Assembly: GCF_006442795.2 (NCBI RefSeq)
Contig: NZ_CP083956.1
Span: forward strand, 496,001 to 560,000
Length of the DNA stretch: 64,000 bases
Reading direction: 5' to 3'
DNA from: Mesorhizobium sp. B1-1-8
GTDB lineage: Bacteria > Pseudomonadota > Alphaproteobacteria > Rhizobiales > Rhizobiaceae
This document shows positions 2,406 through 7,718 of this stretch, one piece after another. The notes beneath the pieces are model-generated. The model saw only the letters and a program-made list of their open reading frames with translations, was not told the origin of the DNA and did not search any database. A program made the translations under genes and the position numbers. Numbering within the stretch: the first letter of the stretch is position 1; each line of letters opens with the position of its first letter.

Positions 2406-2427
2406 TAAAATCAAGGACCTGAAGCAG

Positions 2428-2453
2428 GTCGCGTGAATCCTTTTTCACGCGAC
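2428..2453. repeat. Ten-base-stem inverted repeat, possible terminator
   Basis: GTCGCGTGAA and TTCACGCGAC are perfect complements around a six-base loop. The hairpin sits between the convergent ends of the VOC gene (2368) and the PPTase gene (2523), where it could end transcription from either side, although no long U-tract follows it. The same motif is common in rhizobial intergenic mosaics. Confidence 0.5.
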
Positions 2454-2522: not shown

Positions 2523-3170
2523 TTAGGGCGTATAGGCCAGTGCCAAAATTCGTGGACGGGCGGTACAACGCACCAGCAAACGTCGGCCGGATGACGTGGC
2601 CGCTTCGCCTGATTTCAAATCCACGGAAATGTCATCGAATTCCAGCATTCGGCCGTCGAGCGGAAACGACGCCTTGTAAACTGCCTCTTTCGCCGCGAAC
2701 AGCAGGCGGCCGCCTATTCCCTGATCGAGGTTGCCCAACCTGTCATGTGACGTGATCACAACAGCTCGGAGGTCGGGAGGCAATGGCAACATTGGCTCGA
2801 CGTCGACGCCGACGCTTCTCACCGACGGACTTCGCATAGCGACCGCCGCGACTGCCAGCTCTTCGTCATGTGCGATGGAACCGACGATCCCCGGCGGCCA
2901 CATGGGACTGCCCAAGGGGCCCCGGAGTACGGCTACATCCTCACATCGCAGGCGTCGCAGCAATTCATGCACGATCCTGCGACCCGCTCCACTCGCGGCA
3001 CGAGCCTTGCGGTCGCGCGTGGCCATGGAATCGCGCTCCGCCGGCAGCAGGAACTGTTCGTCGCCGCCGCGAATGCGACGGCAACCGGTCAACAGGCCGG
3101 GCGGGCCAAGGGCTTTCAGTGCCTCGGCGACGGCTAGCTCGGATGGTGCACTGTCCGGCTGGATGGCCAA
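2523..3170 (-). CDS. 4'-phosphopantetheinyl transferase (EntD/Sfp superfamily)
   Basis: A 215-residue PPTase that should transfer the phosphopantetheine arm of CoA to a carrier-protein serine. The hallmark motifs are in order: GSIAHD at 97-102, the metal-binding GVDVEP at 121-126 (Asp123, Glu125) and FAAKEAVYKA at 158-167 (Glu162, Lys166). LLPAERDSMATRDRKA near residue 41 matches the EntD-type N-terminal half. The start is a TTG at 3170; a downstream ATG would remove part of the domain. It is the last gene of an operon with the NRPS-like synthetase and a GNAT gene, starting four bases after the GNAT stop. The natural substrate is therefore probably the carrier domain of the synthetase at 3648-7718. 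Confidence 0.85.
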   Translation of the reverse strand: MAIQPDSAPSELAVAEALKALGPPGLLTGCRRIRGGDEQFLLPAERDSMATRDRKARAASGAGRRIVHELLRRLRCEDVAVLRGPLGSPMWPPGIVGSIAHDEELAVAAVAMRSPSVRSVGVDVEPMLPLPPDLRAVVITSHDRLGNLDQGIGGRLLFAAKEAVYKASFPLDGRMLEFDDISVDLKSGEAATSSGRRLLVRCTARPRILALAYTP

Positions 3171-3174
3171 CCCG

Positions 3175-3651
3175 TTATGGCCCCAGTTCGCGTACGGCGA
3201 TCATCTCGTTCTCCTCGTCCAGCCCCTTCTCGACGAATCCGAAACTTGCATAAAGACGGCGCGCGGCCAGGTTTGCCGGCTCATAGCAGATCGAAATGCG
3301 GCGTACATGCTCCAAGCGCCCAATCTCTTCCAGCAGCCTCGTGATCGCGGCGCGGCCAAGTCCCTTGCCCTGTTCGCGGCGATCGATCATGAAACGGTAA
3401 ATGGTTGCCTCATCGTCGTCTTCGGGCGCGCTGTACATCAAAAAACCGACGACGCGGCCGGTTGCGACTACGGCGCGAGCTATGGCTTCGTCGTCCTGCC
3501 GAGCCTCTTCCAGCGATTCGGCATTGGAGGCGACAAAGCCCTGTTGTTCAGGCATCAGTTCGAGATCGAGGACCGCGGATCGATTGCCTTCGCCGACAGG
3601 TTCAAGCAGAACCGGCTGTTCAGTGTTGCGCATTTCGGCGGAGCGCGTCAC
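3175..3651 (-). CDS. GNAT acetyltransferase, polyamine-acetyltransferase-like
   Basis: A 158-residue GNAT enzyme expected to move acetyl from acetyl-CoA to an amine. The CoA-binding motif A is clear: YRFMIDRREQGKGLGR at 85-100, followed by RISICYEPANLAARRLYASFGF at about 118-139, cited here only as a region. The FMID-QGKG pattern resembles diamine/spermidine acetyltransferases such as BltD more than ribosomal-protein acetyltransferases, but this is recollection rather than a search. The start is GTG at 3651, overlapping the synthetase TGA by four bases (3648-3651), so translation is coupled. In context it may acetylate a cationic product or precursor of the synthetase, giving tailoring or self-protection; that is inference. 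Confidence 0.8.
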   Translation of the reverse strand: MTRSAEMRNTEQPVLLEPVGEGNRSAVLDLELMPEQQGFVASNAESLEEARQDDEAIARAVVATGRVVGFLMYSAPEDDDEATIYRFMIDRREQGKGLGRAAITRLLEEIGRLEHVRRISICYEPANLAARRLYASFGFVEKGLDEENEMIAVRELGP

Positions 3652-6600
3652 GGCGCCTGGCCGATTTTGATCGCGCGGGCATCTATCGGCGTCACGACGC
3701 TATAGAGCTTGGCCGGATTGCCGCGCCAAACAGTGTTGGGCTCGAGGACTTCGCCTTTCATCACGAAGCAGTCGACGTCAGCGACCGATCCTTCCCCCAT
3801 GACTACCGCATAGTGGATGAAAGAGGAGGGGGCGAGGGTGCAGCCGTCGCCGATACGGATATAGTCGGACTTGAACGCACCTTCCTCCAGCGAATGCGCC
3901 TGGATGACGCAGCCCTCGTTGAGGGTCGCGTCGTTGCCGATCTCGACCAGCGACCGTTCGGTAATGATGCTTCCACCGTCATAGACGCGCCGCCCGACCT
4001 TCACGCCCAGCATGCGCAGGATGAGCGGCCTGAACGGGGTGCCGGTGAACAGGCCCATGATCGGCGAATCCGACAATTTCCAATGGCGTTCGTGCCGCCA
4101 GAAGACAGGGTCGTAGATTGTGGCCATGCGCGGCTTCAGCCGGCGGAACCCGAGGCTGGCGCGTTCGAGGAAGATGTAGAACGGAATACCAATCGCCGTG
4201 GTCAGCACCACCGCCACGAACAGAGCCGTCTGCCCCCATTCGGTATAGTAATTGAGCCCCCGGTCCCAAATGGCGAGCGTCAGGAACAGGATCAGCCATT
4301 GCGCTGCGACGAACAGCAACGCTGTGACGAGATTGTGGAGGTTCTTCAGCGGCAGGCGGCGATGCTTCTCCTTGTCGGAAATCAACCCGAGCAGTTCTTT
4401 GTCGCGGTTGACCATGCGCGGGATCTCGAACGGTGGCGAGCCCAGCAGGCCGACGTTCTCGCGGACAGGGCCATCCACCGGGACATGGACCTTGGTTCCG
4501 AGCAGGCAGTTGTCGCCGGTACGGGAATCCGGTGAATAGATGATGTTGTTGCCGAAGAAATTGCGATCGCCGACCCGCGTGTGCTCGAGGCGGAAGGAGT
4601 TGGCCGACTTTTGCATGTTGACCATGAACAGGCCGTCGGACACCATCGTATGCGAGCCGATTTCGCTCAGCTGCGGATTCTCGTGCCTCTGGTTGGTGCC
4701 GAAATTCGAGCCGGTCTGATCCACCTTGTTCAGTCGCCAGCCGATGGCGCGCAGATAGTAGACGACGGCCGAGCTGTCGCCGAACAGCACGTTCAGCAGG
4801 CGTACATTGCTGACCAGTTCCAGCATCGATTGCAGCCAATAGTGGAAGCCGTAAAGCGAATAGTCTCGGCCGGGTTTGAGCAAGAGGTTGAAGAGCCGCG
4901 GCACGATGGCGGCCAAGAGCACCCCGCCGACAATGAATCCGGCGACGGTGACCGTGGTGCCGATCGCTACGATGCCGATGGTCTCCTGATAGTCGTCGCC
5001 GACATTTTCCCAATAGGTGTGGAAGAGCAGCGGGAACGGCGTGACGATGGCGAAGAGGATGACGAGCTGGATCGTCTCATAGATGACCCGGCGCACTCGC
5101 GACAGCGGCATGTTGGGGACGGTGCAGTAGTTCGCGTCGGTCGGGATCGCCGGCGAACCGTGCCAACGCTCGCCGGCGGGGATAACCTGTCCGCGATGCA
5201 GCGAGGAGGCGTGGCCGAGTTGCGCGCCATCGCCCATCCTTGTGTCGATGTCCAGGGTCGAGCCGACGCCGACGAAAGCATTGTTGCCGATGTCGAGCGG
5301 CCCGGTGTGGATGTAGCCCGCCTGCGCGCGGAAGCCGAGGATCATCGAATCCTTGCGCAGGATCGAGTTGTCGCCGATCGTAATCAGGTCCGTGCAGACG
5401 GGAACGGAGCGGCACTCGATGACCGTGCGGTTGCCGAGCCGCGCACCGAGCAGGCGCAGATAGAGGCTGTAGAGCGGGCTGCCGCGAAACAGCACCACCG
5501 GCGCGCTGCGGACCAGCGTCTTTACGACCCAGAAGCGATAGTATCGCCAGCCCCAGATCGGGAACGTCTCGGCCTTCCAGCGGCCAACCAGCAGCCATTT
5601 GGCGACGATGGCAACGCCGCTGAGCCCGAAGAACACGGCGGCGGACAGAAGAACGCAGCGCAGATAGAGGCTCGGCGCGTCGTCCAGGGCATCATAGACC
5701 CAGTTGAGGCCGTCATTGATCGCCCACAGCGAAAGATAGCTGTAGACCGCGTAGAACATCAGCTGGCCGAAGCCCGTCCTCCAATAGGCAAGATTGGAGG
5801 CCCGATGTGTCAGCATCGGCTCGCTTGCGGCCACCGCGGTCATCTGCGGCGCGCGCAGGTGATCGGCGAGCTTCGCAACAGTGGGATACAGGTAGATGTC
5901 GCGCATCGAGGTTGTCGCCCAGGCCTTGCGGGAACGGATGCGCGCGCAGAACCGGGCCATGAGCAGCGAATTCGCGCCGAGATCGTCGAAGAAGTGATCC
6001 TCGATGGAGATGTCCTCGAATTTCAGCACGTCCGCGAGCGTGTCCACGAGAAACTTCTCGTCCTCGTTGCGCGGATCGATCATCGCGTGTCCGGCCGCGA
6101 CGCGCGCGCTTGTCGGCTTCGGCAGTTTCCTGAGATCGACCTTGTTGGAAACCGTCATCGGGATGGCGGGCAGCTGCTCCAGATACGCCGGCACCATGTA
6201 GTCGGGCAGCCGTCGCTTCAGCTCCTGCACGAGCATGGTGCGGTCCACGCCTTCGCCGCCGCTTTTGGGCGCATAGTAGCCGACCAGCTCCGTGCGTTCG
6301 GGCTCGATCTCCCACGTCGTGACTGCCGCCTGCGCGACGCCCGGCTGATCCAGCAGCACGGCCTCGATCTCGCCGAGCTCGATGCGATAGCCGCGGATCT
6401 TGACCTGTGTGTCGATGCGGCCGTGATATTCGATGTCGCCCTGGTCGTTGATGCGGCCAAGATCGCCCGTTCGATAGATACGTCCGCTTGGATTATTCGG
6501 CAGACCGATGAAATCGTGAATAAATTTCTCGTCCGTCAATTCCGGCCGGTTGAGATAGCCGACCGCCACGCCCATGCCGCCGATGCAGATCTCGCCCAGC

Positions 6601-7718
6601 TCGTCGCCAGTCAGCACCTTCGGGTTTTTCGGGTCGAGAATGGCTATCGAATAAGTGGGCAGCGGGCTGCCGATGGTCACCGGCTTGTCCGGCGTCAGCA
6701 ACGCCATCGTGGCGGTTACCGTGGCCTCGGTCGGGCCATAGGTGTTCAGGATCTGGCGGCCGGGCTTTGCCCAGCGCGTCACGAGCTTCTGCGAGCAGGC
6801 CTCGCCGCCGACCAGGATGGCGCGCAGACTGGCCGCGTCGCTCTCGATCGAAGAGAGCAGTGTCGGGCTGCAGGCCATGCATGTGATCTGGTGTTCACGC
6901 AGGAAGCTGGCCAGCTCCTCGCCCACGAGAGGCTGCTGGCCGGGTGCCGGCACGACGGTGGCGCCTGCGGCAAAGGGCACCCAGATCTCCTCCGAGGAGA
7001 AGTCGAAGGCGATCGTCATGCCCTGGTACACGCGGTCGCCCGGCTGATAGCCGTAGGATGCCGTGGCCACCCGAATGAAGTTGCAAAAGCTCTGATGGGT
7101 GATGACCACGCCCTTCGGCTTGCCCGTGGTGCCCGACGTGTAGAGGATGTAGCAGGTCTGGTCCTGACTGCCGTCCGGCAAGGGCGCAGTTTCCGGCTTG
7201 AGCGCGATTTCGGACTCCGCGGAGTCGATCGAGATGTGCGGAACCGGCAGGCGCGCCACGCGGGCCGCATAGCCGGAGACGCTGATCACCATCGTGACAT
7301 TGGCGTCCTCGATGATCATCACCATGCGATCTTCGGGGAACGCGGTGGCCAGAGGGACGAAAGCCGCCCCAGCCTTCATCACCGCAAGGATGGCGATATA
7401 GGTCTCTGCCGATCGGTCCAACAGAAGGCCGATCCTGTCGCCCGGCTTCACTCCGCGCTCGATCAGCAGATGCGCGAACTGGTTGGCACGGTTGTTCAGC
7501 TCTCGGTAAGACCAGGGCCGGCCGTGAGAAATGACTGCCGGCGCGGCATCGAAGCGGCTCGCCAGATCGCTGAAGAACCGGTCGAGTCTCTCATGCGGCT
7601 CACCCTTCTGGATGAAATCTGGGCCGATGAGGATCTGCTCGCGGGCGGGCGGTCCTGCCGTTACTTTCGCATGGCGGGAGTTTTGCCCGGCGGGCTTGGT
7701 TGCTTCATTGAGAGACAT
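3648..7718 (-). CDS. Pls/PosA-family NRPS-like membrane synthetase (poly-amino-acid type)
   Basis: A 1356-residue protein built like the epsilon-poly-L-lysine synthetase Pls (about 1320 residues). An adenylation domain spans about 45-535, with LYTSGTTGKPKG at 192-203, NTYGPTEAT at 325-333, YRTGDLGR at 415-422 and NKVDLRKLP at 525-533. A carrier domain follows with LGANSLL and Ser584 as the pantetheine site. Next come about six membrane segments separating three hexapeptide (left-handed beta-helix) domains, the arrangement of the NRPS terminal domain in this family. There is no condensation or thioesterase domain, as in Pls, where the tandem membrane-linked domains join the monomers. Asp239 lies at the usual amino-group position and Glu243 nearby in the pocket. 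Downstream GNAT and PPTase genes complete an operon. A cationic isopeptide product is inferred; the monomer is unknown. Confidence 0.88.
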   Translation of the reverse strand: MSLNEATKPAGQNSRHAKVTAGPPAREQILIGPDFIQKGEPHERLDRFFSDLASRFDAAPAVISHGRPWSYRELNNRANQFAHLLIERGVKPGDRIGLLLDRSAETYIAILAVMKAGAAFVPLATAFPEDRMVMIIEDANVTMVISVSGYAARVARLPVPHISIDSAESEIALKPETAPLPDGSQDQTCYILYTSGTTGKPKGVVITHQSFCNFIRVATASYGYQPGDRVYQGMTIAFDFSSEEIWVPFAAGATVVPAPGQQPLVGEELASFLREHQITCMACSPTLLSSIESDAASLRAILVGGEACSQKLVTRWAKPGRQILNTYGPTEATVTATMALLTPDKPVTIGSPLPTYSIAILDPKNPKVLTGDELGEICIGGMGVAVGYLNRPELTDEKFIHDFIGLPNNPSGRIYRTGDLGRINDQGDIEYHGRIDTQVKIRGYRIELGEIEAVLLDQPGVAQAAVTTWEIEPERTELVGYYAPKSGGEGVDRTMLVQELKRRLPDYMVPAYLEQLPAIPMTVSNKVDLRKLPKPTSARVAAGHAMIDPRNEDEKFLVDTLADVLKFEDISIEDHFFDDLGANSLLMARFCARIRSRKAWATTSMRDIYLYPTVAKLADHLRAPQMTAVAASEPMLTHRASNLAYWRTGFGQLMFYAVYSYLSLWAINDGLNWVYDALDDAPSLYLRCVLLSAAVFFGLSGVAIVAKWLLVGRWKAETFPIWGWRYYRFWVVKTLVRSAPVVLFRGSPLYSLYLRLLGARLGNRTVIECRSVPVCTDLITIGDNSILRKDSMILGFRAQAGYIHTGPLDIGNNAFVGVGSTLDIDTRMGDGAQLGHASSLHRGQVIPAGERWHGSPAIPTDANYCTVPNMPLSRVRRVIYETIQLVILFAIVTPFPLLFHTYWENVGDDYQETIGIVAIGTTVTVAGFIVGGVLLAAIVPRLFNLLLKPGRDYSLYGFHYWLQSMLELVSNVRLLNVLFGDSSAVVYYLRAIGWRLNKVDQTGSNFGTNQRHENPQLSEIGSHTMVSDGLFMVNMQKSANSFRLEHTRVGDRNFFGNNIIYSPDSRTGDNCLLGTKVHVPVDGPVRENVGLLGSPPFEIPRMVNRDKELLGLISDKEKHRRLPLKNLHNLVTALLFVAAQWLILFLTLAIWDRGLNYYTEWGQTALFVAVVLTTAIGIPFYIFLERASLGFRRLKPRMATIYDPVFWRHERHWKLSDSPIMGLFTGTPFRPLILRMLGVKVGRRVYDGGSIITERSLVEIGNDATLNEGCVIQAHSLEEGAFKSDYIRIGDGCTLAPSSFIHYAVVMGEGSVADVDCFVMKGEVLEPNTVWRGNPAKLYSVVTPIDARAIKIGQAP

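What the first reader, a model, noticed from the sequence alone, without database searches (positions are those of the whole stretch)
2523..7718. Three-gene operon for a Pls/PosA-type membrane NRPS with its own PPTase and GNAT
The synthetase has the exact layout of epsilon-poly-lysine synthetases: adenylation, one carrier domain with Ser584, six membrane segments and three beta-helix domains, with no condensation or thioesterase domain. A GNAT gene overlaps it by four bases and a PPTase gene follows four bases later. A self-contained, coupled set in a rhizobial chromosome suggests a dedicated cationic isopeptide or related amide polymer, possibly for envelope, root colonisation or competition. 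The product is not known to me for this genus.
Basis: partly seen in the sequence, partly recalled or inferred. Interest (0 to 1): 0.85.

Follow-up and report, generated by a model that had tools for sequence, protein, structure and literature searches.

The report
Rhizobial membrane maker of cationic polymers
A soil bacterium carries a conserved three-gene unit that most likely builds a short chain of small, positively charged amino acids at the cell membrane; it belongs to a known enzyme family, but its partner genes and its substrate pocket form a variant whose product is unknown.

Summary
The 1356-aa protein at 3648-7718(-) is a Pls/PosA-family synthetase (TIGR02353, 848 bits, cut-off 423) with an A domain, one carrier domain (Ser584) and three membrane-helix pairs, each followed by a beta-helix. 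An active-looking GNAT overlaps it by 4 nt and a PPTase follows.

New here: the trio is a conserved unit of one Hyphomicrobiales clade. Of 28 genomes found with this synthetase type, 26 have the PPTase and 21 the GNAT beside it. The clade is nested among relatives that instead carry a diaminobutyrate transaminase beside, or fused to, the synthetase (15 of 15 fetched from the order). At its base that linkage disappears, GNAT and PPTase appear, and pocket positions 6-7 change from S[VA] to G[TS]. Only 4 of 28 such genomes encode a transaminase over the cut-off.

Best reading: a membrane-bound polymerase for a short diamino acid, with its own PPTase, and a polyamine-acetyltransferase-like GNAT that probably protects against or tailors the product. 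Whether the product is still a diaminobutyrate polymer is unsolved. New variant of a known kind.

The parts
3648..7718 (-). Pls/PosA-family membrane synthetase, 1356 aa (A - carrier - three x [membrane helix pair + beta-helix])
   Evidence: TIGR02353 847.7 bits; Pfam domains; model of the C-terminal 730 aa
6141..7562 (-). adenylation domain (residues 53-526), pocket DFEALGTVTK (residues 239, 240, 243, 282, 302, 304, 326, 334, 335, 526)
   Evidence: the same extraction returns the published PosA code DMEHNGTVSK in PosA-type relatives
5856..6053 (-). peptidyl carrier domain (residues 556-621)
   Evidence: PF00550
5967..5969 (-). codon of Ser584, expected phosphopantetheine attachment site (motif DLGANSLLM)
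   Evidence: conserved in at least 95% of 79 family members
3711..5765 (-). polymerisation region TIGR02353 (residues 652-1336); beta-helices at about 746-861, 990-1101, 1229-1341
3894..3896 (-). codon of His1275 in the third beta-helix, centre of a conserved cluster E1254, Q1273, H1275, E1278, K1283, Y1303; candidate catalytic site (inference)
   Evidence: each at least 0.99 conserved in 79 rows
3175..3651 (-). GNAT acetyltransferase, closest by sequence to spermine/spermidine acetyltransferase 2fl4/9dsb
2523..3170 (-). Sfp/PptT-type phosphopantetheinyl transferase with motifs GSIAHD, GVDVEP, KEAVYK
2416..2430 (-). terminator-like hairpin 93 nt after the PPTase stop (weak; such sites are expected by chance here)
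   Evidence: 6 sites found, 3.8 +/- 2.0 in shuffles

Best explanation
The operon encodes a membrane-bound, iterative homopolymer synthetase. The PPTase loads phosphopantetheine on Ser584; the A domain adenylates a small diamino acid (by analogy with PosA, Asp239 holds the alpha-amine, Glu243, Thr326 and Thr335 the side-chain amine, and Phe240 limits chain length) and loads it on the carrier; the membrane-seated triple beta-helix domain then joins carboxyl to side-chain amine repeatedly, giving a short cationic isopeptide that leaves through or at the membrane. The GNAT acetylates amino groups of the product or monomer, as self-protection or as tailoring. Shown: domain make-up, intact motifs, conserved linkage, placement within transaminase-linked synthetases, pocket difference. 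Inferred from family knowledge: homopolymerisation, isopeptide link. Guess: GNAT target; monomer (2,4-diaminobutyrate or 2,3-diaminopropionate more likely than ornithine or lysine).
For: TIGR02353 match and intact family-invariant residues; model with three helix-pair plus beta-helix repeats, as described for the PosA model (PMC10522769, section 13). Pocket D-F-E...G-T-V-T-K keeps positions equivalent to the four polar contacts of PosA (PMC10522769, passages; code). PPTase and GNAT beside the synthetase in 26 and 21 of 28 genomes of this type. In the family search the 21 PPTase matches of 250 bits or more and the 19 GNAT matches of 200 bits or more all lie in the 23 genomes with the synthetase, one of the GNATs on another contig. 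A start that overlaps the synthetase stop by 4 nt is possible in 23 of 38 loci. GNAT nearest by sequence to a polyamine acetyltransferase, with EctA far behind. Precedent: acetylation of the beta-lysine amine as resistance in a streptothricin producer (PMC11702664, passages).
Confidence: 0.6

Rival explanations
1. It is simply a gamma-poly-2,4-diaminobutyrate synthetase like its sister enzymes; the transaminase gene was lost because diaminobutyrate comes from a less specific aminotransferase or from outside.
For: Nested within the transaminase-linked lineage; same D-F-E...V-T-K frame; 4 of 28 genomes hold an unlinked transaminase over the cut-off. A protein of S. celluloflavus, a species named in PMC8117764 and PMC4668381 (titles in reference lists) as producer of poly-gamma-diaminobutyrate, reads DFEYVGTVTK; if it is that synthetase, G-T-V-T suits diaminobutyrate too.
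Against: 24 of 28 genomes have no transaminase over the cut-off, against 14 of 15 linked relatives that do; pocket positions 6-7 are G[TS] in 121 of 121 rows (the 120 listed homologues and the window) but S[VA] in 24 of 24 transaminase-linked loci. No transaminase was found in the flanks of the DFEY-type loci.
Confidence: 0.35
2. The substrate is a diamino acid of central metabolism (ornithine or lysine), so no dedicated supply gene is needed.
For: Positions 6-9 G-T-V-T resemble PosA (G-T-V-S) and Pls-type pockets; PosA is a single-gene operon and uses ornithine (PMC10522769, section 6); no supply gene found here.
Against: Phe at position 2, where ornithine and lysine enzymes have Met and Ala and where a larger residue is proposed to shorten the substrate (PMC10522769, discussion).
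Confidence: 0.2
3. No polymer: the enzyme makes a single amide, for instance an aminoacylated small amine or lipid, later acetylated by the GNAT.
For: Beta-helix acyltransferases (maltose O-acetyltransferase and others) are the nearest folds listed for the C-terminal part; no product is known in this clade.
Against: All columns conserved across the family sample are kept, and the characterised members named in the papers seen make homopolymers (PMC10522769; PMC8117764).
Confidence: 0.1
4. The GNAT is a housekeeping polyamine or N-terminal acetyltransferase that merely sits in the operon.
For: Fold and profile matches are generic; related GNATs of 70-126 bits occur in genomes without the synthetase; missing beside 7 of 28.
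Against: The operon subtype (200 bits or more) occurs in 19 of 23 synthetase genomes and in none of the 371 others; one copy on another contig groups with operon copies.
Confidence: 0.25

Closest known systems
gamma-poly-diaminobutyrate synthetases (PldA, PddA; the dat and ask context of pldA from PMC8117764)
   Same: A-carrier-TIGR02353 layout; Phe at code position 2 according to PMC10522769; dat-linked relatives form the nearest branch
   Different: No dat beside the synthetase, rarely in the genome; GNAT and PPTase instead; pocket G[TS] not S[VA] at positions 6-7. No sequence of PldA or PddA known to me as such was at hand
PosA, delta-poly-ornithine synthetase of Acinetobacter (PMC10522769)
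   Same: Layout; polar pocket contacts; G-T-V at positions 6-8
   Different: PosA is a single-gene operon with Met at position 2; 28-30% identity to loci with the PosA code, 27% for one near-variant
Pls, epsilon-poly-lysine synthetase (A domain 7wew)
   Same: Layout; A domain homologous
   Different: Pls has Ala at position 2 (PMC10522769) and a peptidase neighbour (PMC8117764)
PDAPs, poly-diaminopropionate synthetase of Streptomyces albulus (PMC4668381)
   Same: Layout; Phe at position 2 according to PMC10522769; monomer genes not beside it (passages)
   Different: No GNAT or PPTase neighbour mentioned in the passages seen; its sequence was not at hand
Spermine/spermidine acetyltransferase 2fl4/9dsb (Enterococcus faecalis)
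   Same: Closest solved relative of the GNAT by sequence, E 2e-16 over 135 residues
   Different: 33% identity; an enzyme of polyamine metabolism (recalled)
PptT/Sfp-type phosphopantetheinyl transferases
   Same: Fold family and catalytic motifs
   Different: Below the cut-offs of the three named PPTase models matched; tied to this synthetase

Membership tests
Pls/PosA family (TIGR02353) | terminal domain over curated cut-off, full length | tested here: met
   847.7 bits against 423.1, positions 6-695 of 695
Pls/PosA family (TIGR02353) | one A domain and one carrier domain, no condensation or thioesterase domain | tested here: met
   Pfam scan
Pls/PosA family (TIGR02353) | three helix pairs with three beta-helix domains | tested here: met
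   AlphaFold2 model, pTM 0.92
Pls/PosA family (TIGR02353) | carrier serine modified by phosphopantetheine | not testable with these tools
   Ser584 conserved; PPTase motifs intact
Pls/PosA family (TIGR02353) | makes an isopeptide homopolymer of a diamino acid | not testable with these tools
   needs mass spectrometry
epsilon-poly-lysine synthetase (Pls proper) | Ala at code position 2, lysine pocket | tested here: not met
   Phe; code DFEALGTVTK
delta-poly-ornithine synthetase (PosA proper) | code DMEHNGTVSK | tested here: not met
   DFEALGTVTK; working like it is not excluded
gamma-poly-diaminobutyrate synthetase (dat-linked) | diaminobutyrate transaminase beside it or in the genome | tested here: not met
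   none in the operon; best TIGR00709 match 263.6 bits (cut-off 401.6) is a GABA transaminase
gamma-poly-diaminobutyrate synthetase (dat-linked) | activates 2,4-diaminobutyrate | not testable with these tools
   needs A-domain assay
poly-diaminopropionate synthetase | Phe at code position 2 | tested here: met
   Phe240; shared with the diaminobutyrate group, so not decisive
poly-diaminopropionate synthetase | 2,3-diaminopropionate synthases SbnA/SbnB in the genome | tested here: inconclusive
   none over cut-off; one SbnA-like PLP enzyme, 191 bits of 350, on the second contig
GNAT acetyltransferase | acetyl-CoA motif and fold | tested here: met
   PF00583 54.8 bits; QGxGxG motif; model pLDDT 90
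Sfp-type PPTase | 4PPT_N plus ACPS domains with catalytic motifs | tested here: met

The most novel reading that the evidence does not exclude
In one Hyphomicrobiales ancestor a diaminobutyrate-polymer operon was rebuilt: its transaminase went, pocket positions 6-7 were retuned, and a polyamine-type GNAT plus a private PPTase came in. The result is a new natural polymer, neither poly-lysine, -ornithine nor -diaminobutyrate, made by many soil and plant-associated alphaproteobacteria and partly N-acetylated by the GNAT, which sets its charge or keeps it harmless inside the cell: the first acetylated member of the cationic isopeptides.
Probability: 0.27. Interest if true: 0.75.

Novelty: new variant of a known kind. 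Interest (0 to 1): 0.55.

Why it matters
Few natural cationic amino-acid homopolymers are known; before PosA they had been identified from actinomycetes (PMC10522769, abstract), and their biological significance is called unclear (PMC9606270, passages). This clade offers a compact three-gene system in tractable soil bacteria, with an evolutionary before-and-after (transaminase-linked S[VA] pocket against GNAT/PPTase-linked G[TS] pocket). That makes two open questions testable: how the pocket chooses the diamino acid, and how a cell handles a polycation that it makes itself. The tie between S[VA] and an adjacent transaminase (24 of the 27 S[VA] loci seen) may also help to predict diaminobutyrate polymers from genomes.

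Tried and rejected
Poly-lysine reading: rejected, since the pocket has Phe, not Ala, at position 2. Known monomer genes: diaminobutyrate transaminase, SbnA and SbnB were sought in the genome and none passed its cut-off; the best transaminase match is a GABA transaminase and the best SbnA match is nearest to cystathionine beta-synthase. An SbnA-like PLP enzyme beside a GHMP-type kinase on contig C2 was followed and left: similar partial matches (profile 37-304) were printed for only 3 of the 43 genomes. A wider conserved neighbourhood: only the three genes recur in all 11 loci compared; the fourth shared group is a frame antisense to the synthetase, and the rest occur in fewer loci. Assigning PldA, PddA or PDAPs by sequence: not achieved; code strings gave no paper, and the best 120 names of 4287 were generic, though one protein is from S. 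celluloflavus (see rival 1). PDB fold searches: no Pls-type polymerisation domain among the rows listed for the C-terminal model, which is no proof of absence. Promoters: chance level.

In print: searches listed no paper on this operon (listings only, apart from the papers cited). Supplements could not be opened, so the code table of PMC10522769 was not seen. Papers: PMC10522769 outline, passages and sections 6, 10, 13, 14; PMC8117764 passages and results section; PMC4668381, PMC9606270, PMC11702664 and PMC8949500 passages.

Rows dropped or chosen: L054 and L024 (partial) left out; one search took 15 of the 30 loci; L158, L171 and L175 left out of the tree, which is a chosen set of 53 rows with SH-aLRT support only; partial matches G600, G404 and G545 were not followed; L114 (G066) lies on a 5.7-kb contig, so missing neighbours mean little. 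In one search three more aminotransferase matches (L046, L077, L082) lie about 7 kb from synthetases of another pocket type and were not tested further. Score gaps for GNAT (200 bits) and PPTase (250 bits) were set after seeing the lists, both profiles were built from synthetase-linked genes, the search scored only the best candidates per genome, and the Fisher values ignore kinship. At looser thresholds 36 (GNAT) and 56 (PPTase) of 394 genomes match.
Full report
OBSERVATION. On the minus strand three ORFs lie head to tail: synthetase 3648-7718 (1356 aa), GNAT 3175-3651 (158 aa, sharing 4 nt with the synthetase) and PPTase 2523-3170 (215 aa, 4 nt later). The synthetase matches TIGR02353, 'Pls/PosA family non-ribosomal peptide synthetase', with 847.7 bits (cut-off 423.1) over positions 6-695 of 695, plus AMP-binding, AMP-binding_C and PP-binding in Pfam. 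The genome holds one such enzyme over the cut-off. Sequence and fold searches of that part listed hexapeptide acyltransferases and other beta-helix proteins such as gamma carbonic anhydrases.

INTEGRITY. Of 109 alignment columns conserved in at least 95% of 79 family members the window keeps all, including Ser584 and, in the third beta-helix, E1254, Q1273, H1275, E1278, K1283 and Y1303. I propose that last cluster as the condensing site; this is inference. The PPTase has its three motifs and the GNAT its QGxGxG motif. Besides AcpS it is the only PPTase found in the genome, and no NRPS condensation domain was found.

POCKET. The ten code positions were read from an alignment, using GrsA numbering from memory; the same reading returns the published PosA code DMEHNGTVSK in PosA-type loci (published code in PMC10522769, passages). 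The window reads DFEALGTVTK. In that paper Phe at position 2 goes with diaminopropionate and diaminobutyrate enzymes, Met with ornithine and Ala with lysine (discussion). The code that it reports for rhizobia among others, DLEDIGTV(T/V/I)K, resembles that of other, distant synthetases here.

COMPARATIVE EVIDENCE. (a) Among 80 loci from named genomes, the 10 with at least 56% identity all have GNAT and PPTase homologues downstream of the synthetase (in L011 the PPTase matches a short ORF); of the other 70 none has the GNAT, and one has a PPTase match about 3 kb upstream. (b) In 394 genomes of the same family, 34 have a related synthetase and 23 are of the window's type (2400 bits or more; the next has 1734); the GNAT is adjacent in 18 and the PPTase in 21 of the 23. 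(c) Profiles of the two partners were run over the same 394 genomes. The 19 GNAT matches of 200 bits or more and the 21 PPTase matches of 250 bits or more all fall in the 23 synthetase genomes and in none of the other 371; the next scores are 126 and 214 bits. In G204 the GNAT sits on another contig, yet its sequence groups with operon GNATs (support 98/86). (d) In 397 genomes of the order, five more genomes of this type appear (2332-2623 bits; the next has 1908): PPTase adjacent in 5 of 5, GNAT in 3 of 5. Totals: PPTase 26 of 28, GNAT 21 of 28. A start codon that overlaps the synthetase stop by 4 nt is possible for the next gene in 23 of 38 loci of this type (at least one contig is counted twice).

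THE SISTER GROUP. The nearest relatives outside the clade carry a class III aminotransferase instead: 15 of 15 order genomes fetched, and 9 of 80 named loci have one next to the synthetase or within about 1.6 kb; in Pseudonocardia sp. N23 it lies in the same ORF. Eight of these 24 proteins were tested: all eight pass the cut-off of the diaminobutyrate transaminase family TIGR00709, and six also that of EctB. This matches the dat and ask genes shown beside pldA, the gamma-poly-diaminobutyrate synthetase (PMC8117764, results section). All 24 linked loci read S then V or A at code positions 6-7; three more S[VA] loci (L015, L017, L114) showed no transaminase. The window's clade reads G then T or S in 121 of 121 rows, the best 120 of 5593 matches plus the window. 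In a tree of 53 chosen synthetases the clade is one group (support 100) nested inside the transaminase-linked group (nesting branches 97 and 91). Transaminase over the cut-off: 14 of 15 linked genomes, but 4 of 28 of the window's type, on other contigs than the synthetase; SbnA over its cut-off: 0 of 43. So one ancestor most simply lost the linked monomer gene, gained PPTase and GNAT, and changed its pocket; PPTase and GNAT each need three changes on the tree, which I read as one gain and two losses.

A CAUTION ON THE SUBSTRATE. A third group reads DFEY.GTVTK; none of its loci showed an aminotransferase in the flanks. That shows Phe with G-T-V-T and no linked transaminase elsewhere too. But one such protein is from S. 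celluloflavus, a species known to make poly-gamma-L-diaminobutyrate (title in the reference list of PMC4668381). If that protein is the polymer's synthetase, G-T-V-T would not speak against diaminobutyrate. I could not decide this.

GNAT ROLE. By sequence its closest solved relative is a spermine/spermidine acetyltransferase (E 2e-16); the next, with EctA among them, lie at 6e-5 or weaker. Database names include 'diamine N-acetyltransferase'. By fold it is a generic GNAT. Together with its close association with the synthetase this points to an amino group of the polymer or monomer. Streptothricin offers a precedent: acetylation of the beta-lysine amine was first found as resistance in a producer (PMC11702664, passages); in Pls operons a peptidase is thought to protect (PMC8117764). 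The GNAT's absence beside 7 of 28 synthetases says that it is not needed for polymerisation. Two transaminase-type loci (L166, L167) have a GNAT of 141-150 bits within about 2.5 kb of the transaminase, so the association may be older; the GNAT tree does not settle it.

VERDICT. A real, conserved and intact operon of a known enzyme family, in an arrangement for which no description was found, with an unassigned substrate. It is a member of TIGR02353 and probably works like the Pls/PosA enzymes; it is not Pls proper, PosA proper or a transaminase-linked diaminobutyrate synthetase by the tests made. The substrate remains the main unknown.

Noticed in passing
L018:9764-15910: In Pseudonocardia sp. 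N23 synthetase and diaminobutyrate transaminase profiles both match a single 2048-aa ORF, an apparent gene fusion.
   Followed up: partly
L173:3869-4630: In G204 the operon-type GNAT lies next to ORFs that look like panC and panB (recognised by eye), while its synthetase stands on another contig without either partner.
   Followed up: partly
L125:5756-7938 (G000:C2): SbnA-like PLP enzyme overlapping a GHMP-kinase-type gene on the second contig; possibly an amino-acid pathway.
   Followed up: partly
L171:5128-9841: In G327, which lacks this synthetase type, the next-best PPTase (214 bits) lies near a 1108-aa ORF with a 277-bit match to the synthetase profile.
   Followed up: no
L166:11812-12309 and L167:2-475: Transaminase-type synthetase loci with a GNAT of 141-150 bits nearby, so GNAT association may predate the window's clade.
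   Followed up: partly
window:587-1504: Sigma-70/ECF-type sigma factor gene just downstream of the operon, like PRK08241 and TIGR02960 but below their cut-offs.
   Followed up: no
P0112-P0119: Relatives at 58-59% identity read DFECLGSVTK or DFEVLGSVTK, possible intermediates of the pocket change.
   Followed up: no
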